64,000 nt of DNA from contig NC_017770.1 of NCBI RefSeq assembly GCF_000242635.2, positions 2,120,669-2,184,668 of the forward strand, read 5' to 3'. Shown here in pieces: positions 34,448 to 62,109 of the stretch. Each line of letters starts with the position of its first letter. The first letter of the stretch is position 1. A model generated the notes under the pieces. That model had not been told where the DNA came from. It saw only the letters and a list, made by a program, of their open reading frames with translations, and did not search any database. The DNA is from Solitalea canadensis DSM 3403. GTDB taxonomy: Bacteria; Bacteroidota; Bacteroidia; Sphingobacteriales; Sphingobacteriaceae. Made by a program: the position numbers and the translations under genes.

Positions 34448-34567
34448 CCGTAACCCGTAACCCGTAACCCGTAACCCGTAACCCGTAACCCGTAACCCGT
34501 AACCCGTAACCCGTAACCCGTAACCCGTAACCCGTAACCCGTAACCCGTAACCCGTAACCCGTAACC
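34448..34567. repeat. Perfect 7-bp tandem array (CCCGTAA)n, about 17 copies
   Basis: About 120 bp of uninterrupted CCCGTAA. On the minus strand this is GGGTTAC repeated, with four or more GGG runs spaced by four bases, which is the standard pattern for G-quadruplex formation and close to telomere repeats. It lies between the convergent ddl and thioesterase genes and ends 4 bp before the thioesterase stop codon. Confidence 0.95.
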
Positions 34568-43304: not shown

Positions 43305-43380
43305 TAATGCCTATTATTGCAGGTAAGGTAATCTGAATATGGTTGAAGATACCTTTGTTGCGGATTATTTTTATACATTT

Positions 43381-43402
43381 GATAGTATCATATGATACTA
43401 TC
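43381..43402. promoter_or_regulatory. Perfect 22-bp palindrome abutting the fic start
   Basis: GATAGTATCAT followed at once by its reverse complement ATGATACTATC. Its last base is directly before the ATG at 43403, so a bound protein would cover the start of transcription or translation. The Fic protein itself ends in a winged-helix domain and is the first candidate. Confidence 0.7.
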
Positions 43403-44368
43403 ATGTTAAAACCTCCTTATTCAATAACTTCACTTATATTAGAACAGACCGCTTCAATTTTCGAAAAATTGGGCGAAATTAAATCTGCTAATCTTCAAAA
43501 AGCACCTACGGAATTACGAAAAAAAAACAGAATAAAAACAATACAATCTTCTTTAGAGATCGAAGGAAATACACTAAGCACGGCACAAATAACTGCTCTT
43601 TTAGAGGGTAAAAGAATTCTAGCTCCTGAAAAAGATATTCTGGAAGTAAAGAACGCCATTAAAGCCTATGAGCTGTTAAATGAGTATGAACCATATAAAT
43701 TAGCGTCATTATGTAAAGCTCATAAAATTTTAATGACTGAATTGGTAAAAAATCCAGGGAAGCTCCGTACTCAACAAGTAGGTATAGCTCATGGAGAGTC
43801 AATTAAGCATATCGCTCCGCCACATAGCATGGTAGAGTCTCTGTTAAACAACCTCCTTGCTTATTTAAAAAATGATTCCGATTTGTTATTGATAAAAAGT
43901 TGTGTGTTTCATTATGAGTTTGAGTTTATCCATCCTTTTATGGATGGTAATGGCAGAATGGGACAATTATGGCAACCTGTTATTCTGAAAGATAAATATC
44001 CCGTTTTTGAATTTTTACCCATTGAAACATTAATTAAAAAGGAACAGAAGAGCTATTATAAAGCACTTGCATTATCTGATTCCTTAGGACATTCAACTCC
44101 ATTTATTGAGTTTATGCTAAACATAATAAAGCAGGCTTTGGAAGAATTACTACAATCTCAAAACATAAGCTTAACAGGAAAAGATAGAATTCAATTGTAT
44201 AAAAATGATATAGGCCTGAACAATTTCAGCAGACAGGAATATATGCGGTATTTCAAAACGATTTCATCTGCTACAGCAAGCAGAGATCTTAAAGATGCTG
44301 TAGCAGAAAAAATAATTGAAAAAACCGGGGATAAACGTTTAACGATCTATAAATACTTTCCGGATTGA
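43403..44368 (+). CDS. Class II Fic protein with C-terminal winged helix
   Basis: 321 residues from the ATG at 43403 (an upstream in-frame start would place the palindrome inside the gene). The inhibitory motif SSLEIEGN (about 50-57, S-x3-EG type) precedes the Fic domain, so it is class II, self-inhibited. The active loop is HPFMDGNGRMGQLW at about 177-190; the usual final GR is GQ here, which may alter ATP binding. A wHTH domain follows (about 255-321, SATASRDLKDAVAEKIIEKTGDKRLTIYKYF). Fic enzymes transfer AMP to target proteins; the target here is unknown. Confidence 0.9.
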   Translation: MLKPPYSITSLILEQTASIFEKLGEIKSANLQKAPTELRKKNRIKTIQSSLEIEGNTLSTAQITALLEGKRILAPEKDILEVKNAIKAYELLNEYEPYKLASLCKAHKILMTELVKNPGKLRTQQVGIAHGESIKHIAPPHSMVESLLNNLLAYLKNDSDLLLIKSCVFHYEFEFIHPFMDGNGRMGQLWQPVILKDKYPVFEFLPIETLIKKEQKSYYKALALSDSLGHSTPFIEFMLNIIKQALEELLQSQNISLTGKDRIQLYKNDIGLNNFSRQEYMRYFKTISSATASRDLKDAVAEKIIEKTGDKRLTIYKYFPD

Positions 44369-44562: not shown

Positions 44563-46491
44563 CTATCCCAAATAACTTAATTCCCAGGCACTTTGGTATG
44601 CACTGTTATTTTGAACATGATCTAAGAAACTGGCATAAAATGGATGAGACGATAATGTAGCGCTATCACCGATAATCAAAAGTTTCTTCTTTGCACGGGT
44701 AATAGCTACATTCATCCGTCGGGTATCTGCTAAAAAGCCGATTTCATTTTTCTCATTACTTCTTACCAGGCTAATTGCTATTAAATCACATTCTTGTCCC
44801 TGGAAGCCGTCCACAGTATTGAAGCTGATTTTTTTGCCTAAAGAGGCCAGCGTTTCAAAATTTTCTAATTGCTCTGTTAAGAAACTTACTTGTGCCTTAT
44901 AGGGAGAAATAACGCCTACACGACGAATTTTATCCATAACTTCATTATCATAGTTGGTTAACTGCTGTAAATAATCATTCAGATAATTCATCAACAGATT
45001 TCCTTCTTCCGGATTGCTGGCACTTCGCCCGTTTTCTGTACGCTCATTAAAGCCACAACCTGCTGTGTCAATAAATAATAATGGATTTTCGTCTTCCTTC
45101 ACCAGTTTTCGGTTCGCTACAGTTTCAAAGGCAGTCAGTTTACCGCGATAAAACTGCTGATTCGAAAATTCCATAATCGCTTTGTTCATTCGGTACTGAA
45201 CCTCCAGTAAGGTATCAACCTTTTGTCGTTCGATTACCTTTTCAAATAGCGTTACATTTAGTCCTTGCTTACCAGCCTCATAAGATTTTACAGTAGGAGG
45301 TAACTGACAATGGTCGCCCGCCATGATCACTCGTTGCGCTTTCATGATAGGAATCCAGCATGCCGGTTCTAAAGCCTGAGCCGCTTCATCAATGAAAACA
45401 GTTTTAAACTGACGATCCCGTAATACTGAATTATTCGAACCCACTAATGTACAAGCAATTACTTGTGCTTCTGAAAGTATATCACTGACAATATAGTCTT
45501 CCAGCTTGATCGCTTCTTGCTTTAATGAACGAGCCTCATTAAACAATAGCTGTCGCTGCCGGCTTTCTTCTTTTCCAAAGTTCCGCTTGTACTTAAAGGC
45601 CATATTTCTAAATTCTTCGGCCTTCTTACGGATGCTTTTTATATCGTTAAAATATTCATGCTGACTGATCTTATTATCAATCACCAAATCAGCCAGGTGA
45701 TCTCCTACACGCGCCGGATGTCCGATACGAACAACATTTAAACCCTGAGCAGATAAACGCTCACATAGCAAGTCTACAGCTGTGTTACTCGGCGCTGTTA
45801 CCAATACTTGTTTCTCTTTTAGGGTAACTTGCTTAATTGCTTCCACAAAGGTGGTAGTTTTTCCAGTTCCCGGTGGCCCATGTACAATGGCGACATCATT
45901 AGCATTAAGAATGTTATGAACTGCCGAATTTTGAGAAGTATTTAACTGCTGACTTTCAGATGTATAAAAATCGGCAGAGAAACTGGCAGGGGAGTGGCCT
46001 AACAAAATTTCCCTTAACTCTGCCAATCGATTATTTTGTGCTTCGGCAACAATACGAAGCGTATCATCCATTTCTTTATAAGACGTTTCGTCAAACAACA
46101 GATCAATACCGATTTTACCATCATTAATCCATTCCGGAAGCTCATCTGCGTTTAAATATAACCGTAAACGATCTTTCAAGGCTGTTCCAATAACACCTTC
46201 AACACGCAATTTAGAAGCCTGATTGTTGGTATTACAAAACAATGAAGCCCGTTTTCCTGTTTGTAACTGGTGATCGCTATTTTTGGAATTGGTTCGCTCT
46301 AGTTCAACAAAAACCTGTTCACCGCGACCATAACCTGTTTGGGTAATTTTAACCGGGTACCAGCTGCTGCCATTTTTTACACGCTCACTGATTTCGGATT
46401 CAACAACAAACTTCCGGTATTGTTGTAAATCTTCCTCTTTCTCGATCTTAAGTATTTTCCGTAAATGCTTTAACTCTTCAGCAGCAGTCAT
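44563..46491 (-). CDS. UPF1/IGHMBP2-like superfamily 1 helicase
   Basis: 642 residues. N-terminal beta-barrel (about 40-175), then two RecA folds with Walker A GPPGTGKTTT near 204, motif II DEAAQALEP near 368, motif III GDHCQLPPT near 397, motif IV/V ISPYKAQVSFL and VDGFQGQECDLIAISLVRS, and motif VI NVAITRAKKKLL. The DExxQ form and overall length put it in the UPF1-like SF1B group (5'-3' on RNA/DNA). Cellular role in bacteria unknown. Divergent from map with a 104-bp gap. Confidence 0.92.
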   Translation of the reverse strand: MTAAEELKHLRKILKIEKEEDLQQYRKFVVESEISERVKNGSSWYPVKITQTGYGRGEQVFVELERTNSKNSDHQLQTGKRASLFCNTNNQASKLRVEGVIGTALKDRLRLYLNADELPEWINDGKIGIDLLFDETSYKEMDDTLRIVAEAQNNRLAELREILLGHSPASFSADFYTSESQQLNTSQNSAVHNILNANDVAIVHGPPGTGKTTTFVEAIKQVTLKEKQVLVTAPSNTAVDLLCERLSAQGLNVVRIGHPARVGDHLADLVIDNKISQHEYFNDIKSIRKKAEEFRNMAFKYKRNFGKEESRQRQLLFNEARSLKQEAIKLEDYIVSDILSEAQVIACTLVGSNNSVLRDRQFKTVFIDEAAQALEPACWIPIMKAQRVIMAGDHCQLPPTVKSYEAGKQGLNVTLFEKVIERQKVDTLLEVQYRMNKAIMEFSNQQFYRGKLTAFETVANRKLVKEDENPLLFIDTAGCGFNERTENGRSASNPEEGNLLMNYLNDYLQQLTNYDNEVMDKIRRVGVISPYKAQVSFLTEQLENFETLASLGKKISFNTVDGFQGQECDLIAISLVRSNEKNEIGFLADTRRMNVAITRAKKKLLIIGDSATLSSHPFYASFLDHVQNNSAYQSAWELSYLG

Positions 46492-47754: not shown

Positions 47755-48069
47755 ATTATTTATATGATTGAAGGCAGCCTGGTTCTAATGAGTCAGGCTG
47801 TTGTGTTTAAGGTCAAATTCGAGGTAAAGGGGATAATTGAAATATTCTATTTAACATAATATCAATTATAGGAATTTATATAAAATAAGCTTTGAGTGGA
47901 ATTATTATAATCAATTTTCCGTTCAACATTTTAACTGTGTTTTTTTACATAATCCAATAGTTAAATTACCGTGGTTTTATGCAAGAAATTTGTACTTTAC
48001 GGCAATTAAAAAATCTACATTTACAATCATAGATTACACGAAGGTCGCAATATATAAATTGTGCTATGT
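47755..48069. other. Gap upstream of the nuclease-like gene
   Basis: About 315 bp. Holds the hairpin at 47775-47800, probably the terminator for the map-VOC unit, and AT-rich sequence that should contain the promoter of the 48070 gene. No gene seen. Confidence 0.4.
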
Positions 48070-49758
48070 ATGACTCCGTCAGAAGAATTATCTTTTATAT
48101 TAAACGAAAAGAGTAAGATAATTGGCAAGACATATGTTGGTCCAAGCTACCATGTGATCCAAAACATTATTCGTTGTATAGACAATCTCTTACCTTTCCC
48201 TCCTAGTTTAAATGAGCTTTCCGCTGGGCAAATAGAGCACATCCAAGAATTGATAAGTTTTGGCTGGCCTCGACTTTTAAAGCCCTATTACGACGATATT
48301 AATATAGAGACTCATTTACCATTCCAAGTAATGACAGATGATCTAATCCAGTGGACGATTTCCAATCTAATTTTTTCTGGAAAAATAGAACTATGCAGGC
48401 AACTGATTTCATATGAAAAGGCCGGGCTACTAATAATCGACAAACATGCAGAAAATAGTTTCACCTTTTCTTATTCCAATGAATTTACTGGCATTGAGCA
48501 ATATGATAGGGAAAGTGCAGAGTTTTATAAAATAGAAATAGTTAACAAAATTGTTGATGAAAGAAGAAAAGCGAAGCCTTTTGATGAAAAGAAAATAAAA
48601 TCAGAGTTCGAAAAGCTAATCTTAAATCCTTTAGGACAATTAATAAGTTATGATACTACTCCTGAGATAGACGACTATTATAATGAAGAAGGGCATTACA
48701 GGCTATTGATGATGCAAGGATATGATGATTTTGATAATAAGGACATTTTTGGTGGAATAGAATACAGTAAATATATTGATGTTGTTGAGCTGATTATTGG
48801 AGTTGGTATTAAACATTCTGAGGCTTGCTTTATGGTAAAGCAAAGGAATAACAAGGTGAATCTTGAAAATCTATTGACCTATACACAGACTAAAGCAAGA
48901 GCTATAAACGACTATGCTAACTACTTAGGATGGGATACTGCAGTGGTGCAGCAAATTTTTGAAACAATCACATTAACCAAAGAGAATTACGATTACTACC
49001 TGGAATACCCCGCTACTCCACCGCCTATTTTTGTAGAAGTAGGTGGCCAATTATTAATGAGATCAATTGCTGGCTGTTTTGCTAATCCTTTTTCTATCCT
49101 TAACCGGGAATTAAAACGTAAGTATAAGAAGGATTATGACAAGGCATTGAACAATAGGGAAAACAGGTTTAGAAAAGAACTGTTCCTATTCTTTCCACAA
49201 GAACAGATCGTGAAAATCCAGAGAGAGATTAAGATATCATTTGAAGGAATCAAAACAGATATTGATGCCATTGTTTTTGATAAGCAAACTGGAACATTAG
49301 GCTTGTTCCAATTAAAATGGCAAGACCCTTATGCTCATTCTATGAAGGAGAGATTTAGTCGCATTACCAATTTATTTCCTAAAGCGAATGAGTGGATTTC
49401 TAAAATAAGACAGTGGATAGCTGCTAATACGGAGCAAACAATATTAAATTCTTTACAGATCGATAAGGAGCTTGTCAAACCTGTGAAGATAAACGAAATC
49501 TGTGTGTTTATTCTCTCAAGAAATCAAATCAATTTTACGGGTGTAGAATTGGACAACACCGTAGCATGGAGTTCCTGGTACCAATTAATTGAAAGTAACG
49601 CAAAGATTAAGACCATGTTCGATGATCCAATAAGGGAAATGTATGTTAAGATTAAAGCTTTCCGACCAGAATTTAGAAGTTCAATGGAAGGAAAGAAAGA
49701 AAAACCTGGCGAACTTGAGATCGATCTGGGGGATGTTAAACTATCGCACAAAAAATAG
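48070..49758 (+). CDS. Predicted PD-(D/E)XK nuclease-like protein
   Basis: 562 residues from the ATG at 48070. Most of it is a helical N-terminal region I cannot assign. Residues about 380-440 have strand-rich TDIDAIVFD... LGLFQLKWQDP: Asp399 and, fifteen residues on, Q414-L-K416, the D-x(n)-QxK pattern of Mrr/NERD-like PD-(D/E)XK enzymes. It converges on the methyltransferase operon with 22 bp between the stop codons, so it is its likely nuclease partner but is transcribed separately. An HJR/competence or repair role is also possible. Confidence 0.6.
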   Translation: MTPSEELSFILNEKSKIIGKTYVGPSYHVIQNIIRCIDNLLPFPPSLNELSAGQIEHIQELISFGWPRLLKPYYDDINIETHLPFQVMTDDLIQWTISNLIFSGKIELCRQLISYEKAGLLIIDKHAENSFTFSYSNEFTGIEQYDRESAEFYKIEIVNKIVDERRKAKPFDEKKIKSEFEKLILNPLGQLISYDTTPEIDDYYNEEGHYRLLMMQGYDDFDNKDIFGGIEYSKYIDVVELIIGVGIKHSEACFMVKQRNNKVNLENLLTYTQTKARAINDYANYLGWDTAVVQQIFETITLTKENYDYYLEYPATPPPIFVEVGGQLLMRSIAGCFANPFSILNRELKRKYKKDYDKALNNRENRFRKELFLFFPQEQIVKIQREIKISFEGIKTDIDAIVFDKQTGTLGLFQLKWQDPYAHSMKERFSRITNLFPKANEWISKIRQWIAANTEQTILNSLQIDKELVKPVKINEICVFILSRNQINFTGVELDNTVAWSSWYQLIESNAKIKTMFDDPIREMYVKIKAFRPEFRSSMEGKKEKPGELEIDLGDVKLSHKK

Positions 49759-49780
49759 ATTCTATCTTACTTATCTCATA

Positions 49781-50695
49781 TCATAAGCATTCCTTCAATT
49801 CCATCAAAGAATCGCGATGTTTCTTTAAGTTTATCCTTATTTCTTTGAAGGATTCTTCATTAAATTCAAAATGATTATCACCAATCTGAGCTTTTAAAAA
49901 CTCTTTGCCATCTCCATTTATTATAACCTTAGAATGAGCAAACTTGTTTCTCACATCGATCACTTCTGACTGATATGGAGCATTGACCTTAATAAAGCTT
50001 GGAATATACTGATGTTTCTCTTTGTTTTTTTTCAAAATTCCTCTTAGTAGTTCCAATTTTCTTATTGCATCAAGTCGAGGTAGAATAGCGGTTATCCCTC
50101 CCTTTTCATATTCTGCCTTCAACCATTTACATTTTCCTTGTTCTTTCTCTAAAATCTGTTCATTGAAAAATTTATCAATATCAAAGGCTTTAGCAATATC
50201 TAATTCCGTGCATTGTTGTAGTCTTTCTTCAATCATTTCATCAAGATCAGACGTTTCACCTACAATTAAGCCACGCATTGAATTGATTTCTTCAATTTTC
50301 TTGATGGTGGTAAGAAATACTTTTTCAAATTTATCTTCAATCTCTTTCCTGTCAGAATGATAAACACCTTCAAGTTCTCTTTCTTTAATCGATTCTATAA
50401 TGGTTTGCTTATCGCTCGAATAGAAGATGATGTCCGTATATATATTTTTCTCCCGTAAAAAATCAATAATAGAACTGCCATCTGCAGAGTTTCTTAAATT
50501 GAAATCAATCAGGAAAATATCATATTTCTTTAACCCATCGTCAACAAGTTCCTGGATCACTTCATCAAGCGTTTTCTTCCTTTTAATTATTGGATTAAAT
50601 CCATGGCCCTCAACAGTTTCCCTGAATAATTCGGTAGTTGTTTCATACCATGAATTATCGTCTTCTACCCAAAGAATGTAATAGTTTAGTTTCAT
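49781..50695 (-). CDS. Receiver domain fused to HEPN-like domain
   Basis: 304 residues. Residues 1-125 are a response-regulator receiver: acidic pair in WVEDDNSW (Glu11, Asp12, Asp13), phospho-acceptor Asp64 in FLIDFNL, and the conserved Ser in FYSSDKQ near 93. The C-terminal part (about 130-304) is alpha-helical and contains DVRNKFAHSKV with R249-N250-xxx-H254, the RNxxxH signature of HEPN RNases. No DNA-binding domain is present. Its start overlaps the stop of the upstream dual-ATPase gene (ATGA), so the two are made together. I infer an RNase-type or toxin-like output switched by phosphorylation. Confidence 0.65.
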   Translation of the reverse strand: MKLNYYILWVEDDNSWYETTTELFRETVEGHGFNPIIKRKKTLDEVIQELVDDGLKKYDIFLIDFNLRNSADGSSIIDFLREKNIYTDIIFYSSDKQTIIESIKERELEGVYHSDRKEIEDKFEKVFLTTIKKIEEINSMRGLIVGETSDLDEMIEERLQQCTELDIAKAFDIDKFFNEQILEKEQGKCKWLKAEYEKGGITAILPRLDAIRKLELLRGILKKNKEKHQYIPSFIKVNAPYQSEVIDVRNKFAHSKVIINGDGKEFLKAQIGDNHFEFNEESFKEIRINLKKHRDSLMELKECL

Positions 50696-53244
50696 TGTTT
50701 AAACTCGATAATTAACTCAAAACCTTTTTTGTAAGTTGGGTTATATACAATAGATGCATTAAAATCTTTTTCAAGAATACGCTTAACATGGCTTAGCCCA
50801 AGGCCAGCTCCTTTTGTAGATGTTACTCCTTCTTCAAAAATCAATTCCTCATCCATATTACTATCCAGCACCTTACCAACATCTTTTATTGATAAAATAA
50901 TGTTGCGTCCTTTTTTAGAAAATTCGAAAATACTTTTGGAGGCGTCTTTTTTCCTGGAATTACCCAATATATTATCCAACACTACAGATAATTCAATGGG
51001 TTGAAAGTCCCTAACGAACTCTACCCCATTATCAATAACTTCAATTTTCATGTCCTTATGTAGTACAGAATATATATTGTCTATATAGTTCTTCATGTAC
51101 TTCACAATATCTTCTTCAGTTGAAAGCTGAGCCTGTAAGAAGTTGGATTTGGTCGTGAACTTAGTGATCGTATTTATTTTTTCGTTGGCCAAGCTTATTC
51201 CTTGCAGCATAGAAAGAATATCTTCTTTCTTCATGTTTGGATTTTTGTCAAGCTTAGTTTTAAATAGCTTTATTTTTTTTGAAATATCGTCTGCATACAC
51301 ACCAATAATATGGTTAGAATCCCGAAGGTCTTTGTATGTTACAGTTTCGGCAGACCGAAATCTCTCTAATTGCCGCTTTTGATTATCGGCAATTTTTTCT
51401 GCTTGTTTACGAGCTTCTTCTTCTTTGCGGGTCTGTTCTTGTGCTTTTAACTTATCTAATTCAGCTTGTAATCGTTCTTTCTCTTTACGTTCAGTCGCCA
51501 ATTCTGCCTTGCGTCTTCGCTCCTCTTCTTGCTGGTGTTTCTTCTCGGCTTCCAGTCTCTTTTTTTCTTCTTCTTTAGCTTTTTCTTCTGCCTCTATTCT
51601 TCTTTGTCGCTCTTCTTGCTCACGCCTTTCCGCTTTTTCTTTTTCTTTAAGTATGTTATTAAAATTCTCTTCTGTTAGCTTAACCTGGTTGAGTAAATCG
51701 GGGTCGCTTGTTTTCTCGGCAATTTTCTCAAGATCTTGAATAAACTTTGGTTGAACAATATCAAGTTGTTCATTCACAAAATCGACAAGTTTTTTATCAT
51801 AGGATATAATCCTGATGTTCTTATCATCTGATAAAGATTTAATCAGGTTCACGAAATCTATTTTACTTCCTACATTCGCAGTAACATCTTCGTACGTATC
51901 TTTGTCTTTATCTCCTTTCAGATTTTCCCTTATTTCGTATGCGATTTCATCACTTATAAAATAATTCCTTCTACGGAAAGCTTCTCCCCAAAGGACGCCT
52001 GTTACATAGCGTTCCAAACGTTTCAATGCTTTTTCTTCAAACAACTCAAAAAGCACCTTTTTGCCTAATGTTTCTACCAGACCGCCATCTCTACTTGAAA
52101 CCTCTCTAAATTCATTGAATGCTTCTGTTATCAGCTCTACACTTCCAAAAAGCTCCCTTGTACCTAAATTTCGACCAAATCCTTGTTGTTTATTTTTATC
52201 CAAGCCCCAACTGTCATCCCCTGCATTACCATAAGGTTGTACTCTAAAGCCATTTTTAAATAAGAATACATTACCATAGTTAACAGGTTCAATGTCCATT
52301 ATTTTGCCAAAATTAACTTTAGCACTCCTGTTAAGAAAGTAAAGACCAATATCAAGATCGTCAATAAGTTTTTTGTGCTTATTAGGTTCTTCTATATAGT
52401 AGATTAAACTTCCTCGGTCAAATAATTTGGTAGTGATTTTATTGTCTTTGACCTCGACATTTACTTGCGTAGTTTTTATATCGAGAACCTTCAATATGCT
52501 GTTATGAATTGCTCCATTAATCTTTTGAGCATCTGGTCTATCGGCATCACGTTCTAAAAACTCTTCCGCAATAATTTCAATTTCGAAGTCTTCTCCTTTT
52601 GAAAATGGGTTGATAAGTTTCTCCAGCGACCTTTTAAGTTCTACTAATTTTCCTTCTGTCCAGATGGAGTTAAGGTTACTAATTCTCAGAAAAGTTCCAT
52701 GAGGTTTATTATTGGGGAACTCAATTTTTCCAGTGTACCCATCTAAAGGGATTTGAATATCGCCAAAGCTCTGTCTTGCATCAACATCGAATTGATCCCA
52801 ATTCACATCAATCGAATAAACTGCACTTTCTCCATCCTTACGAGTGATAAGTTCAAGTTGGCTTCCTAACCTATCGCATGAAAAACGGCCAACTCCTTTG
52901 GCCCCAGCGTAAAATCTTTTCGACTTTAAATTATTTAAATGGCGGCCTCGTTTCGAGGTTTCAGCTTCGTTTTCATTTTCTTCGAGGTCTTCTGAACCAT
53001 CCTTCTTAGCAGAATAAGCGACAGCAAACCATTTATTTTTTAAATCCTTCTTAGACATGCCCTTGCCGTTATCTGCAATTATTACCTCATCGCTTTTGAA
53101 GGTTAACGTTACGTTCGTTGCATGGGCATCGTAAGAATTTTTTACAAGTTCATAAATAGCAATAAAATCATCGGTAATTAAATCTCTACCGATAATATTT
53201 TTCATCCCTGTCTTTACATCAAAAGAAATAAATTCTTTAGTCAT
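50692..53244 (-). CDS. Dual GHKL protein: MORC/Hsp90-like ATPase plus histidine-kinase-like ATPase
   Basis: 850 residues. The N-terminal GHL ATPase shows the N-box ELVKNSYDAHA (32-42), DNGKGM (58-63) and GAKGVGR (114-120), followed by an S5-like transducer (about 330-390, NVFLFKNGFRVQPYG). A long charged coiled coil spans about 530-635. The C-terminus resembles a sensor kinase: possible phospho-His645 in SNHIIGVYADDI, N-box LDNILGNS near 757, and G2 box GAGLGLSH near 812. MORC-like GHL ATPases are known companions of restriction-modification genes; the added kinase half and the receiver gene next to it are the unusual part. Start overlaps the methyltransferase gene by 8 bp. Confidence 0.75.
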   Translation of the reverse strand: MTKEFISFDVKTGMKNIIGRDLITDDFIAIYELVKNSYDAHATNVTLTFKSDEVIIADNGKGMSKKDLKNKWFAVAYSAKKDGSEDLEENENEAETSKRGRHLNNLKSKRFYAGAKGVGRFSCDRLGSQLELITRKDGESAVYSIDVNWDQFDVDARQSFGDIQIPLDGYTGKIEFPNNKPHGTFLRISNLNSIWTEGKLVELKRSLEKLINPFSKGEDFEIEIIAEEFLERDADRPDAQKINGAIHNSILKVLDIKTTQVNVEVKDNKITTKLFDRGSLIYYIEEPNKHKKLIDDLDIGLYFLNRSAKVNFGKIMDIEPVNYGNVFLFKNGFRVQPYGNAGDDSWGLDKNKQQGFGRNLGTRELFGSVELITEAFNEFREVSSRDGGLVETLGKKVLFELFEEKALKRLERYVTGVLWGEAFRRRNYFISDEIAYEIRENLKGDKDKDTYEDVTANVGSKIDFVNLIKSLSDDKNIRIISYDKKLVDFVNEQLDIVQPKFIQDLEKIAEKTSDPDLLNQVKLTEENFNNILKEKEKAERREQEERQRRIEAEEKAKEEEKKRLEAEKKHQQEEERRRKAELATERKEKERLQAELDKLKAQEQTRKEEEARKQAEKIADNQKRQLERFRSAETVTYKDLRDSNHIIGVYADDISKKIKLFKTKLDKNPNMKKEDILSMLQGISLANEKINTITKFTTKSNFLQAQLSTEEDIVKYMKNYIDNIYSVLHKDMKIEVIDNGVEFVRDFQPIELSVVLDNILGNSRKKDASKSIFEFSKKGRNIILSIKDVGKVLDSNMDEELIFEEGVTSTKGAGLGLSHVKRILEKDFNASIVYNPTYKKGFELIIEFKQ

Positions 53245-54475
53245 TAATTATCTTGTTTAATACAATACCGGCTTGTTCCCCAAACAACGGAGGAATAGCA
53301 TTACCGATTTGTGTGTAACGAGGGACTTCCTGAACTCGTCTTTTCCCTCCTGTAGTGTACTTTCCTTGGAAATGATACCAATCCGGAAAGCTTTGTATAC
53401 GAGCATATTCCCTTACTGTTAGAATACGCGGCTCTGAATAATGAATATAATCGTCGGGTAAAGTAGTAATGGTAGGCGCAACTTTTTTTGACGCTAAAGG
53501 AATAATAACATGCTTATTAATATTCATTTGCTCTTTAATTTTAGTATCCAAATTTTTTCCTTTGGGAGCCTTCAAATAAAAAGCAAATTTCTGTTCAACA
53601 TCTGGTCTATGGTTAGGAAAACTATGACTATTAGGAATAGCATCACTACACCCATTTCTTAAAAAATGTTGATAAGGAGACTGTGGTTTTATATACTTAC
53701 CACTAAAGAATTTCTTGCCTCTATCTGGAGTTTGTTCTAACCCATTGCTTTTGAGTAGATCAGAAATTGCATCTATTAATTTTGGATTTTGAGGAAGGTC
53801 TTTGCTGAATAAAAACTGCTTTTTATTTTGAGTAATTTTTTTAAAGAAATAAGTGGCGTCTAATTTCTTTTTCTCGGCAACATCATTTCTAATTCCAACT
53901 AATATAAATCGCGTTCTTTTTTGAGGAATTCCATAGTTTGAAAAATCTATCATTTGCCCCTTTACGTTATAACCCAAACGTGTCAAGACACCGACCACAA
54001 GTTCTGAATAAGCTTTCTTTTTTGACCGAATTTCATTAACAGATGTTTTATTTTTTTTAAACTGAAGTGTAAAACCTTTTACATTTTCAAAAAAAATAAT
54101 TTTAGGCCGAGTGTACATAATAAATTTAAGATAAGATCGAATCAATCCATTCCTGACATCATCTTCTTTACGTCTTCCTGCCATTGAAAATCCCTGGCAG
54201 GGAGGACCTCCAGCCACCATATCTACCCTGTCTCTTAAATTTATTAGTTCATCTTTATATTCTTTTAATACTTTATCTATTTCTAATTCATTTTTGGGTA
54301 GCCAAGATGGCCAATCAAAATGGTTCTTATTTTCAATTAAATTGTACTCTAGTGTTTTAAATGCATCAGGACTTTTTTCAATGGCGAAAAGACCTTTCCA
54401 ACCAGCGTTATGTAGGCCAAGTGATAACCCTCCGCATCCTGCGAATAAATCTATGTAGGAAAAAGATGGCATCAT
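53237..54475 (-). CDS. Cytosine-5 DNA methyltransferase
   Basis: 412 residues from the Met at 54475; the frame is open further upstream but that part overlaps the glycosylase gene and has no motif character. Motifs seen: I SYIDLFAGCGGLSLGLHNAG, IV GGPPCQGFSMAGRR with catalytic Cys near 92, VI ENVKGF, VIII QKRTRFILVG, IX REYARIQSFPD and X QIGNAIPP. The target-recognition region lies at about 220-330. Lies 31 bp after the glycosylase gene and overlaps the dual-ATPase gene. Recognition sequence unknown. Confidence 0.92.
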   Translation of the reverse strand: MMPSFSYIDLFAGCGGLSLGLHNAGWKGLFAIEKSPDAFKTLEYNLIENKNHFDWPSWLPKNELEIDKVLKEYKDELINLRDRVDMVAGGPPCQGFSMAGRRKEDDVRNGLIRSYLKFIMYTRPKIIFFENVKGFTLQFKKNKTSVNEIRSKKKAYSELVVGVLTRLGYNVKGQMIDFSNYGIPQKRTRFILVGIRNDVAEKKKLDATYFFKKITQNKKQFLFSKDLPQNPKLIDAISDLLKSNGLEQTPDRGKKFFSGKYIKPQSPYQHFLRNGCSDAIPNSHSFPNHRPDVEQKFAFYLKAPKGKNLDTKIKEQMNINKHVIIPLASKKVAPTITTLPDDYIHYSEPRILTVREYARIQSFPDWYHFQGKYTTGGKRRVQEVPRYTQIGNAIPPLFGEQAGIVLNKIIND

Positions 54476-54506
54476 AGTTAGATATAATATTATGGTATAA
54501 ACGGGC

Positions 54507-55193
54507 CTAAAATAAGTTTTTTTTATAAAAGGTGCAAGTATCCGCCAACAAACAGGACGTGCATAAAGGTACACGAGCTTTGCAAATACTAGCTGCAAAA
54601 TCCAGTATAGCCCAATTGATTTCTTTTGATCTTGGGTGGTTTATAACTCTAAATGCCAAACTTTGTAAATAAGGATCGCATCGTATATCAGCCAACTGTC
54701 GTTCTTCAAAATAACGTTCCAATACCCGTGTCATGTTCACATCTATTAATGGCCTTGGCTTGTTGAATAGTTGAAGTTCTATGGCGTTTACAATGTATTG
54801 TCCTAAAAAAGGTATTTGTTCCAGTGATTTCCGATCCGAAGGAAAACGTCCTTCTCTGCCAACCATTTCAAGTGCTAAATCTTTAAGCCGTTTAGCACGC
54901 TGACGATATAGTCCAACTGGCTGAAGTTGCTGTTCAATAAAACTATTGTCAGCTTTTGCGATTGCTTCCCAACTTGGGAATGTTTCAAGAAATAATGCAT
55001 GGAATTTTTCAACTGTTTCGGCTTTGGTTCTCTGTAATAATACTTCTGCTATAACTATTTCATAAGAACTTAGTCCTTCTTGCCTCCATGGTAGATGATG
55101 GCGACCAAAAACACCAAACCAACCTAACATTTTATCCTGAAATAAAATAATCCGGGCTTTAACTATTCTTTTACGTCCATCGACCTTTATCAT
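54507..55193 (-). CDS. HhH-GPD DNA glycosylase, MIG-like T/G mismatch type
   Basis: 228 residues from the ATG at 55193 (a TTG four codons earlier is possible). Helix-hairpin-helix IPFLGQYIVNAI with Tyr133, catalytic Asp151 in PLIDVNMTRV, and the four-Cys cluster Cys204-x6-Cys211-x2-Cys214-x5-Cys220 for [4Fe-4S]. In MutY the Tyr position is Ser and in endonuclease III it is Lys; Tyr is found in Mig.Mth, the T/G mismatch glycosylase that accompanies a cytosine methyltransferase. The gene precedes the methyltransferase here, so it most likely repairs deaminated 5-methylcytosine. A C-terminal MutY recognition domain is absent. Confidence 0.85.
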   Translation of the reverse strand: MIKVDGRKRIVKARIILFQDKMLGWFGVFGRHHLPWRQEGLSSYEIVIAEVLLQRTKAETVEKFHALFLETFPSWEAIAKADNSFIEQQLQPVGLYRQRAKRLKDLALEMVGREGRFPSDRKSLEQIPFLGQYIVNAIELQLFNKPRPLIDVNMTRVLERYFEERQLADIRCDPYLQSLAFRVINHPRSKEINWAILDFAASICKARVPLCTSCLLADTCTFYKKNLF

Positions 55194-55399
55194 GAATAAT
55201 TCCAAAATATCAATTTAATTCTCTAAGGATATTCATTGTGCTCGAACCTAAGTTTGACTTTAAGATTAAAGATCACCAATTCACTTATCTATATAAACAC
55301 CTTTTATCCTTCCAGAGTCATTTAAACACAAAAGTAAACCGTTGCAATTAAAAAAGTAATTATTTTAAAATCAATAGTTTATTGTTTTTTTAAAATAAA

Positions 55400-55431
55400 T
55401 TTGCGTAGTCAAATAACTACATATATATTTG
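55400..55431 (+). promoter_or_regulatory. Promoter of the ArsR operon
   Basis: TTTG (55400-55403), 20 bp, TATATTTG (55424-55431). Matches the Bacteroidota consensus. It is interleaved with two operator-like repeats. Confidence 0.75.
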
Positions 55432-55448
55432 TGTAGTTAAATGACTAC
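55405..55448. promoter_or_regulatory. Twin 16-bp ArsR-type operators
   Basis: GTAGTCAAATAACTAC at 55405-55420 and GTAGTTAAATGACTAC at 55433-55448, each with GTAGT/ACTAC arms and 28 bp apart. The first lies between the -33 and -7 boxes and the second just after the -7 box, ending 3 bp before the ArsR start. They also form a larger inverted repeat with each other. Confidence 0.7.
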
Positions 55449-62003: not shown

Positions 62004-62109
62004 TATGAACCATGAACCATGAACCATGAACCATGAACCATGAACCATGAACCATGAACCATGAACCATGAACCATGAACCATGAACCATGAACCATGAA
62101 CCATGAACT
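62004..62109. repeat. 7-bp tandem array (ATGAACC)n, about 15 copies
   Basis: About 105 bp of perfect ATGAACC repeats between convergent genes, running directly into the stop codon of the cytochrome gene at 62108-62110. Confidence 0.95.

What the first reader, a model, noticed from the sequence alone, without database searches (positions are those of the whole stretch)
48070..55193. Candidate two-component restriction/abortive defence island
Seen: four minus-strand genes with 31 bp, 8-bp-overlap and 4-bp-overlap junctions encode a MIG-like glycosylase, a cytosine-5 methyltransferase, a protein with GHKL ATPases at both ends, and a receiver domain fused to a helical domain with RNxxxH; a D-x14-QxK nuclease-like gene converges on them. 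Known: MORC/Hsp90-like GHL ATPases accompany restriction-modification genes; HEPN proteins are common RNase toxins. Inference: the ATPase/kinase senses invading or damaged DNA and a phosphorelay turns on the HEPN effector, while methylation marks self and the glycosylase repairs its mutagenic by-product. I know of no named defence system with this exact set.
Basis: partly seen in the sequence, partly recalled or inferred. Interest (0 to 1): 0.88.

Follow-up and report, generated by a model that had tools for sequence, protein, structure and literature searches.

The report
Methylase-linked two-component suicide system
A bacterial gene block in which a DNA-marking enzyme travels with a clamp-like sensor kinase and a switch protein carrying a predicted RNA-cutting toxin; in relatives the toxin is repeatedly exchanged for a caspase-like protease, which suggests a modular antiviral 'alarm and suicide' device.

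Summary
In 100 loci holding the kinase, a C5-methyltransferase is directly upstream in 80, convergent just downstream in 14, elsewhere in 4, absent in 2. The proposed relay residues are invariant: His645 in 99/99 kinases, Asp64 and R-x4-H in 70/70 receivers. AlphaFold2 gives a confident receiver plus mainly helical domain; HEPN identity rests on the motif, only weakly on profiles, not on fold. New here: in 21 of 100 loci the HEPN receiver is replaced by a homologous receiver (HHalign 97.8%) plus a separate caspase/CHAT-like protein (His/Cys in 16/16 aligned; VIA Z 12.6 to a SAVED-CHAT protease), at least five changes on the kinase tree. A parallel linkage (HEF_HK/Response_reg_2 with C5-methylases) was published in 2021; the proteins tested here do not match those Pfam models and have other outputs, so this is a new variant of a known kind. 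Best reading: a methylation-guarded two-component abortive-infection system. Defence, trigger, phosphotransfer and RNase activity are inferred.

The parts
54507..55205 (-). MIG-like (T/G mismatch) HhH-GPD DNA glycosylase, predicted repair partner of the methyltransferase
   Evidence: Pfam HhH-GPD 1.3e-14; mutY model 4.8e-43 but below its cut-off; PADLOC 'Type II nicking endonuclease' model 1.1e-31; Tyr in GQY and Asp in LxDxN in 10 of 10 homologues found in the 100 loci
53237..54475 (-). C5-cytosine DNA methyltransferase (the only PF00145 match in the genome at E<=0.001)
   Evidence: Pfam DNA_methylase 1.6e-55; 1 match in own genome; same BLAST cluster present in 98 of 100 loci
50692..53244 (-). 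Sensor kinase: N-terminal paraMORC/MutL-like GHKL ATPase, coiled coil, DHp-like His645, C-terminal HATPase_c
   Evidence: Pfam; N36, D58, G60, G62, H645, N762, G812, G814, G816 each in 99 of 99 homologues; N-terminal part resembles BbrUII/HgiDII restriction enzymes (2.9e-18, far below that model's cut-off)
49781..50695 (-). Response regulator: receiver domain (Asp64) fused to HEPN-like helical domain (R249-N-K-F-A-H254)
   Evidence: D64, R249, H254 in 70 of 70; AlphaFold2 pLDDT 92.6, residues 5-134 receiver fold Z 15.9
48061..49758 (+). Accessory PD-(D/E)XK-like nuclease candidate (D-x14-QxK), convergent
   Evidence: Homologues in 4 of 100 loci (window included) and in 8 of 201 order genomes; no significant Pfam match and no PADLOC match

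Best explanation
A methylation-guarded, two-component abortive-infection system. The C5-methyltransferase marks host DNA; the MIG-like glycosylase (or Vsr elsewhere) repairs T:G mismatches from deaminated 5-methylcytosine. The kinase's N-terminal GHKL ATPase acts as a MutL/MORC-like DNA clamp that engages unmodified or otherwise invading DNA; clamp closure lets the DHp-CA module autophosphorylate His645. Phosphotransfer to Asp64 of the receiver releases the fused HEPN domain, a metal-independent RNase with R249/H254, which stops translation and aborts infection. In sister systems the same relay ends in a receiver that controls a caspase/CHAT-like protease. Shown: gene order, linkage, invariant residues, predicted receiver fold, repeated exchange of the output module. 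Inferred: DNA sensing, phosphotransfer, RNase and protease activity, defence.
For: Linkage: a C5-methyltransferase directly upstream in 80 and convergent in 14 of 100 loci; kinase-receiver gap <=10 bp in 97 of 99. Pairwise distances of kinase and methyltransferase (r 0.45, 91 loci), kinase and receiver (r 0.78, 72 loci), methyltransferase and receiver (r 0.56, 64 loci) correlate, 0 of 2000 permutations as high. His645 99/99; Asp64 and R-x4-H 70/70, Asn after R 66/70, the motif described for HEPN RNases (PMC3710099, passages). The receiver of the caspase-like variant is homologous over the receiver region (HHalign 97.8%, E 1.3e-12) and is followed by a protein with invariant GHG and Cys in 16/16 aligned, predicted fold nearest a SAVED-CHAT protease (Z 12.6, rmsd 3.2, 163 aligned). 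At least 5 changes of output on the kinase tree. Patchy: receiver in 7 of 250 order genomes (own included), kinase in 9 of 251 family genomes (own included) and in none of three congeners; 12 of 31 viral contigs matches hold the kinase with a receiver gene.
Against: No experiment. No PADLOC model matches the window receiver, and none convincingly the caspase-like protein (two weak single hits). HEPN by profile is weak: HHalign probability 12%, although 0 of 100 column shuffles reach its score; the C-terminal profile found no HEPN in the PDB by sequence, and in 296 genomes its hits outside this family are two HEPN-like proteins (E 0.002) but also two that look false, one with a better E-value (1.1e-5 and 0.005). 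No fold match for that half, because the receiver fills the lists. Only 1 of 18 short receivers matches Pfam Response_reg. Three loci have a receiver with no recognised output (L082, L083, L164). No match of the receiver in plasmid or phage records. GC content of the block is within the local range.
Confidence: 0.55

Rival explanations
1. A regulator of a conventional restriction-modification system: the two-component pair senses a cytoplasmic cue (for example nucleotide levels) and tunes the R-M genes, as Bellieny-Rabelo et al. suggested for their pair.
For: PMC8011034 (parts 1-5 of 7 read) speculates that the sister family controls R-M systems; that family has the order methyltransferase-kinase-receiver in 6 of 6 loci fetched.
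Against: Here the receiver is fused to a domain with an invariant RNase-like motif, not to a recognised DNA-binding domain, and the output is exchanged for a caspase-like protein.
Confidence: 0.12
2. An ordinary type II R-M island: the convergent 565-aa protein is the cognate restriction enzyme and the kinase-receiver pair is a second, back-up layer (as PrrC is to EcoprrI).
For: The 565-aa family lies in the system locus in L012, L074, L163 and the window, and near Vsr, a C5-MTase-like or GHKL genes in other genomes (L192, L193, L195, partly read by eye). A cluster whose scanned member is HNH_2 occurs in 7 of 100 loci, and one whose scanned member matches restriction-enzyme models in 6 of 100.
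Against: 96 of 100 loci lack the 565-aa gene in the DNA held, and apart from Vsr no nuclease family that I identified recurs in more than 7 of 100; divergent restriction enzymes may have been missed.
Confidence: 0.15
3. An addiction module: the kinase monitors loss of the methyltransferase (undermethylated host DNA) and kills segregants, so the block maintains itself rather than protecting against phage.
For: Same parts; a methyltransferase is nearly always linked.
Against: Not distinguishable from defence by sequence; both may hold.
Confidence: 0.12
4. The receiver works as a phosphorylation-independent switch: the GHKL protein is a MORC-like clamp that binds the receiver-effector directly, and His645 is structural.
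For: Receiver domains in conflict systems have been proposed to work without histidine kinases (PMC8195603, passages).
Against: His645, the C-terminal N and G box residues and Asp64 are all invariant.
Confidence: 0.06

Closest known systems
HEF_HK (PF19191) / Response_reg_2 (PF19192) two-component-like elements linked to R-M (Bellieny-Rabelo et al. 2021, PMC8011034)
   Same: Gene order C5-methylase, GHKL-HATPase kinase, receiver (6 of 6 loci fetched); Vsr in 1 of those 6 and widely in the paper; kinases homologous over both ATPase regions (E 3.9e-30 to 7.2e-38 with our kinase profile in 6 of 6)
   Different: The four kinases tested here (window, L016, L076, L018) give no HEF_HK match at E<=1 while three true members give 1.4e-20 to 8.8e-29; receivers there are 525-567 aa in the six loci, do not match our receiver profile at E<=0.01, and the three scanned have no other Pfam domain; no HEPN or caspase-like output was reported in the parts read
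Detocs (defensive two-component system)
   Same: Three-gene two-component defence system ending in an effector that destroys ATP (glossary passage in PMC11249213); its kinase/receiver anatomy and exchangeable effectors are recalled
   Different: PNP effector in the best-described system; absence of a methyltransferase and of a paraMORC ATPase is recalled; no Detocs protein was compared here
PrrC-EcoprrI and RloC
   Same: HEPN RNase controlled by an NTPase, PrrC also held in check by a DNA modification system (PMC3710099, passages)
   Different: ABC ATPase control and, for PrrC, a type Ic R-M; no phosphorelay
paraMORC GHKL ATPases in R-M operons, including VcSduA (paraMORC3/Shedu) and paraMORC-Ymh (HEPN) fusions
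   Same: GHKL ATPase proposed or shown to act with a nuclease in defence (PMC2292703, PMC12137116, PMC3710099, passages)
   Different: Effector fused to or beside the ATPase; no kinase-receiver relay in the passages read

Membership tests
HEF_HK / Response_reg_2 system (PMC8011034) | Kinase matches Pfam PF19191 HEF_HK | tested here: not met
   No match at E<=1 in the four kinases tested (window, L016, L076, L018); true members L199, L200, L204 match at 1.4e-20 to 8.8e-29
HEF_HK / Response_reg_2 system (PMC8011034) | Receiver matches Pfam PF19192 | tested here: not met
   Window protein none at E<=1; 5 of 70 relatives at E<=0.1, best 0.0023, below the cut-off of 27 bits in the three seen
HEF_HK / Response_reg_2 system (PMC8011034) | C5-methylase gene beside adjacent kinase and receiver genes; HATPase_c_3 + HATPase_c architecture | tested here: met
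Two-component phosphorelay | Conserved DHp His, CA N/G boxes, receiver Asp and fold | tested here: met
   H645, N762, G812/G814/G816 99/99, D788 98/99; D64 70/70; receiver fold Z 15.9, rmsd 2.0, 127 aligned
Two-component phosphorelay | Phosphotransfer | not testable with these tools
   Needs biochemistry
HEPN RNase superfamily | Rx4-6H with polar residue after R | tested here: met
   R-x4-H in 70/70, Asn after R in 66/70
HEPN RNase superfamily | HEPN fold / profile match | tested here: inconclusive
   C-terminal part modelled mainly as helices at high confidence but not compared alone with known folds; weak Pfam HEPN hits in some of 70 (Swt1 6, Abi_2 4, HepT-like 2); HHalign to a HEPN_Swt1 set probability 12%, score above all of 100 shuffles; C-terminal profile hits two HEPN-like proteins at E 0.002 but also two apparently false ones at 1.1e-5 and 0.005
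HEPN RNase superfamily | RNase activity | not testable with these tools
   Needs assay
Caspase/CHAT-like protease (alternative output in relatives) | His-Cys dyad and caspase fold | tested here: met
   GHG and Cys in 16/16 aligned of 21 loci; model of L018 protein pLDDT 93.4; Z 12.6 to 8tl0_I SAVED-CHAT, then MALT1 10.6, Craspase TPR-CHAT 10.0. Foldseek alone gave no E<0.001; Pfam only Peptidase_C25 weakly in 3 of 16 (best 0.028)
Type II restriction-modification system | C5-methyltransferase | tested here: met
Type II restriction-modification system | Cognate restriction endonuclease | tested here: inconclusive
   565-aa candidate in 4 of 100 loci, HNH cluster in 7, REase_II-like cluster in 6
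PADLOC-DB 2.0.0 defence systems | Match of the receiver protein to any model | tested here: not met
   0 families at E<=1 for the window receiver
Detocs | Three-gene two-component set with PNP or related effector | not tested
   No Detocs member was compared here; definition from PMC11249213 glossary and recall
MIG-type T/G glycosylase | HhH-GPD with Tyr and Asp at the catalytic positions (positions recalled) | tested here: met
   GQY and LxDxN in 10 of 10; HhH-GPD in the window protein

The most novel reading that the evidence does not exclude
A class of restriction in which the DNA endonuclease is replaced by signalling: a methyltransferase defines self, a MutL/MORC-like clamp kinase senses non-self DNA, and a phosphorelay fires an exchangeable suicide enzyme (HEPN RNase or caspase-like protease). 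It would be a DNA-methylation-guarded alarm with plug-in death effectors; the record titles of the 80 genomes examined name eleven bacterial and archaeal phyla or groups (some are metagenome bins).
Probability: 0.38. Interest if true: 0.85.

Novelty: new variant of a known kind. Interest (0 to 1): 0.68.

Why it matters
If right, it joins three themes: DNA-methylation self marking, MutL/MORC-type DNA clamps as sensors, and two-component phosphorelays that fire suicide effectors. It gives a concrete, testable function to the kind of R-M-linked two-component pair published in 2021 without a known function, and to kinases built on paraMORC-type ATPases. The repeated exchange of an RNase-like domain for a caspase-like protease behind a conserved relay is the kind of modularity known (recalled) from CBASS and type III CRISPR, and the residues for point mutants are already identified. 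The window's receiver is missed by PADLOC-DB 2.0.0 and by the Pfam Response_reg_2 model.

Tried and rejected
Considered and set aside: (1) that the SF1 helicase at 44563-46491 belongs to the system because it matches Mokosh MkoA (E 5e-91): in a congener in which the kinase and receiver were not found (L161) the same helicase sits beside the same methionine aminopeptidase gene, so it is probably housekeeping. (2) That the island is compositionally foreign: GC 34.7% against 34.6-37.7% in equal windows nearby. (4) Vsr/glycosylase exclusion as proof of shared function: 0 of 100 with both, but P=0.095, and some Vsr genes lie several kb away.

Led nowhere: protein searches of the receiver in plasmids and phages (no match); PHROGs (no match for the receiver); PF19192 in 13 genomes that hold related loci (0 of 13, but nothing rang in the controls either); PDB sequence search of the caspase-like profile (nothing relevant) and of the C-terminal receiver profile (nothing relevant). 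The C-terminal profile's hits L185 (coiled-coil ATPase, E 1.1e-5) and L188 (helicase-like, E 0.005) look false by eye and count against the weight of its HEPN-like hits. HEPN chains did not appear in the fold lists, which the receiver domain fills. Literature: ten searches of the held library (two were aimed at Detocs) gave PMC8011034 as the parallel set; passages of PMC7159879, PMC12839542, PMC8195603 and PMC12137116 do not describe this one. Most subscription papers are not held.

Rows dropped: the search for related loci returned the best 80 of 258 confirmed relatives, so linkage counts are for the nearest 80. Of 31 viral-contig hits, 19 weaker GHKL proteins (L107-L125) were left out of the 100-locus survey; none of the 19 has the HEPN-type receiver by our profile, and the short receiver was not looked for there. 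L009 and L013 were left out as the same places as L080 and L091. A5 holds 16 of 21 caspase-like proteins (not L035, L036, L048, L162, L163). L103 (broken kinase) was dropped from the kinase alignment and tree. L102 is HEPN-type by A4 but unclassified by the script; L051 is counted as caspase-like in the tree only (contig ends inside the gene).
Full report
Observation. The four minus-strand genes and the convergent gene are present with the stated junctions. Pfam gives HhH-GPD, DNA_methylase, and HATPase_c_3 plus HATPase_c in one 850-aa protein. The methyltransferase is the only PF00145 match at E<=0.001 in the 5.2-Mb genome. The window's receiver protein and the 565-aa protein have no PADLOC match at E<=1 and no significant Pfam match of their own. 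The kinase's N-terminal part resembles BbrUII/HgiDII-type restriction enzymes and MutL, far below those models' cut-offs.

Recurrence. The receiver protein occurs in 7 of 250 genomes of the order (own included, one partial) and the kinase in 9 of 251 of the family (own included), in none of three congeners. One genome-collection scan with the kinase alignment returned the best 80 of 258 relatives and one viral-contig scan 31. A C5-methyltransferase of one BLAST cluster is directly upstream on the same strand in 80, convergent just downstream of the receiver in 14, elsewhere in 4 and absent in 2 (one of these at a contig end). The kinase-receiver gap is at most 10 bp in 97 of 99, median -4; the methyltransferase-kinase gap has median -8 over 80. 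The record titles of the 80 genomes give 49 Bacteroidota, 17 Pseudomonadota, 4 Planctomycetota, 2 Bacillota, 2 archaea and single members of six other groups; several are metagenome bins. Pairwise distances of kinase and methyltransferase (r 0.45, 91 loci) and of kinase and receiver (r 0.78, 72 loci) correlate beyond 2000 permutations. The block is therefore a unit that diverges together. These counts concern the relatives nearest to the query.

Relay anatomy. In 99 kinases (one broken one dropped) the N-terminal ATP-binding residues, a His in the stretch before the C-terminal ATPase (His645), and the C-terminal N and G boxes are invariant or nearly so: N36, D58, G60, G62, H645, N762, G812, G814, G816 99/99, D788 98/99. 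In 70 full-length receivers, chosen by family and length, Asp64, Arg249 and His254 are invariant with exact R-x4-H spacing and Asn after Arg in 66. AlphaFold2 on the 70-row alignment gives pLDDT 92.6; residues 5-134 are a receiver domain (Z 15.9 to ComE, rmsd 2.0, 127 aligned). The C-terminal half is mostly helices, with the motif at the end of helix 241-253, three short strands after it and a last long helix.

Is it HEPN? For: the motif and its polar second residue are as described for HEPN RNases (PMC3710099, passages); scattered weak Pfam hits to several HEPN families among the 70 (Swt1 6, Abi_2 4, HepT-like 2); profile comparison with HEPN_Swt1 domains fetched from the order aligns the RN..AH motifs with score 24.3, while 100 column shuffles reach at most 12.5 and three alignments without this domain at most 14.4. 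A genome search with the C-terminal profile (296 genomes, E<=0.01) gave six members of the receiver family, a CBS-HEPN-like protein (0.0019), a HepT-like protein (0.0022; Pfam HepT-like 3.4e-11) after a gene that reads like a minimal nucleotidyltransferase, and two hits that look false, one of them better (1.1e-5 and 0.0054). Against: HHalign probability only 12%; no fold test of this half alone; no PDB sequence match. I treat HEPN as likely, not proven.

Effector exchange. In 21 of 100 loci the kinase is followed by a shorter receiver (median 232 aa) and a separate protein (median 221 aa). The short receivers are homologous to the receiver half of the window family only (HHalign 97.8%, E 1.3e-12), although Pfam Response_reg sees only 1 of 18; their Asp is invariant in 18 of 18. 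The extra protein has invariant GHG and Cys in the 16 of 21 that I aligned; the model of one (pLDDT 93.4) is nearest to the SAVED-CHAT protease (Z 12.6, rmsd 3.2, 163 aligned), then MALT1 (10.6), Craspase TPR-CHAT (10.0) and caspases, although Foldseek alone gave no hit under 0.001. On the kinase tree (99 rows, quick method) the HEPN/caspase-like label needs at least five changes, all five forced by starred branches; shuffled labels need about 20, so the label is also clustered, and stars of a quick tree with a few long rows deserve some reserve. Different outputs on one relay argue that the output enzyme, and not a gene-regulatory domain, is the business end.

Repair gene. The exclusion itself is not significant (P 0.095), and some Vsr genes lie several kb away.

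Nuclease. The 565-aa gene has relatives in 3 other loci of the survey, beside the methyltransferase or Vsr (L012, L163, L074), and in 8 of 201 order genomes, some beside Vsr, methyltransferase-like or GHKL genes; five of those eight genomes are not among the receiver-positive ones nor the kinase-positive ones. It looks like an accessory restriction-type nuclease. A cluster whose scanned member is a HNH_2 endonuclease occurs in 7 of 100 loci, and one whose scanned member matches restriction-enzyme models in 6.

Known relatives. Bellieny-Rabelo et al. 2021 (PMC8011034; abstract, introduction, results, discussion and part of the methods read) described two-component-like elements (HEF_HK, Response_reg_2) with 91.6% linkage over 644 regions, near C5-methylases and Vsr, related to paraMORCs, and found Response_reg_2 in proteins without other known domains. 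I fetched six Bacteroidota loci with true PF19192 members: all six have a methyltransferase, a 967-1001-aa kinase and a 525-567-aa receiver in the same order. Their kinases are homologous to ours, but our receiver profile finds none of their receivers at E<=0.01, and the four kinases of our family that were tested do not match PF19191. So the window belongs to a sister branch with its own output modules. No paper that joins HEPN or CHAT outputs to this pair came up in the searches made.

Mechanism and limits. I infer clamp-based sensing of unmodified DNA from the family (MutL/MORC GHKL ATPases) and from linkage to the methyltransferase; phosphotransfer and effector firing from invariant residues; defence from patchy spread, R-M-type partners and neighbours, viral contigs and exchangeable suicide-type outputs. 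None of these is shown. The three receiver-only loci (L082, L083, L164) are unexplained.

Noticed in passing
L082:11198-11623, L164:9476-9856, L083:11313-11717: Systems whose kinase is followed only by a bare receiver domain (126-141 aa) with no recognised output enzyme nearby.
   Followed up: partly
L031, L033: The methyltransferase-kinase-receiver/HEPN set in two archaeal (Methanimicrococcus) metagenome-assembled genomes.
   Followed up: partly
L086:11298-13443; L103:7992-11975: Receiver gene (Gluconacetobacter) and kinase gene (viral contig) are interrupted; described only.
   Followed up: no
L199-L204: Published-type Response_reg_2 receivers are 525-567 aa with a long C-terminal part that has no Pfam name in the three scanned: a possible third output domain.
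   Followed up: partly
L193:33-1463: GHKL ATPase with C-terminal Hypoth_Ymh (a HEPN family per PMC3710099) directly beside a relative of the 565-aa nuclease-like protein.
   Followed up: no
window 34448-34567 and 62005-62108: Perfect heptamer tandem arrays, CCGTAAC x17 and ATGAACC x15.
   Followed up: no
window 55395-55448: Imperfect 28-bp direct repeat between the glycosylase gene and the ArsR-type gene, at the edge of the block.
   Followed up: no
window 43343-44368: Fic-like protein (by eye: HPFMDGNGR) with an inhibitory-helix-like SSLEIEGN motif (motifs recalled) upstream of the helicase gene.
   Followed up: no
L025:12977-14197, L010:9951-11684, L017:12487-13263: Neighbours of related systems match PADLOC restriction or defence models (REase_II, Orf5/HEC-06, HNH); 5 of the 10 hand-picked proteins had such a match, a sixth matched the transposase TnsB and 4 none.
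   Followed up: partly
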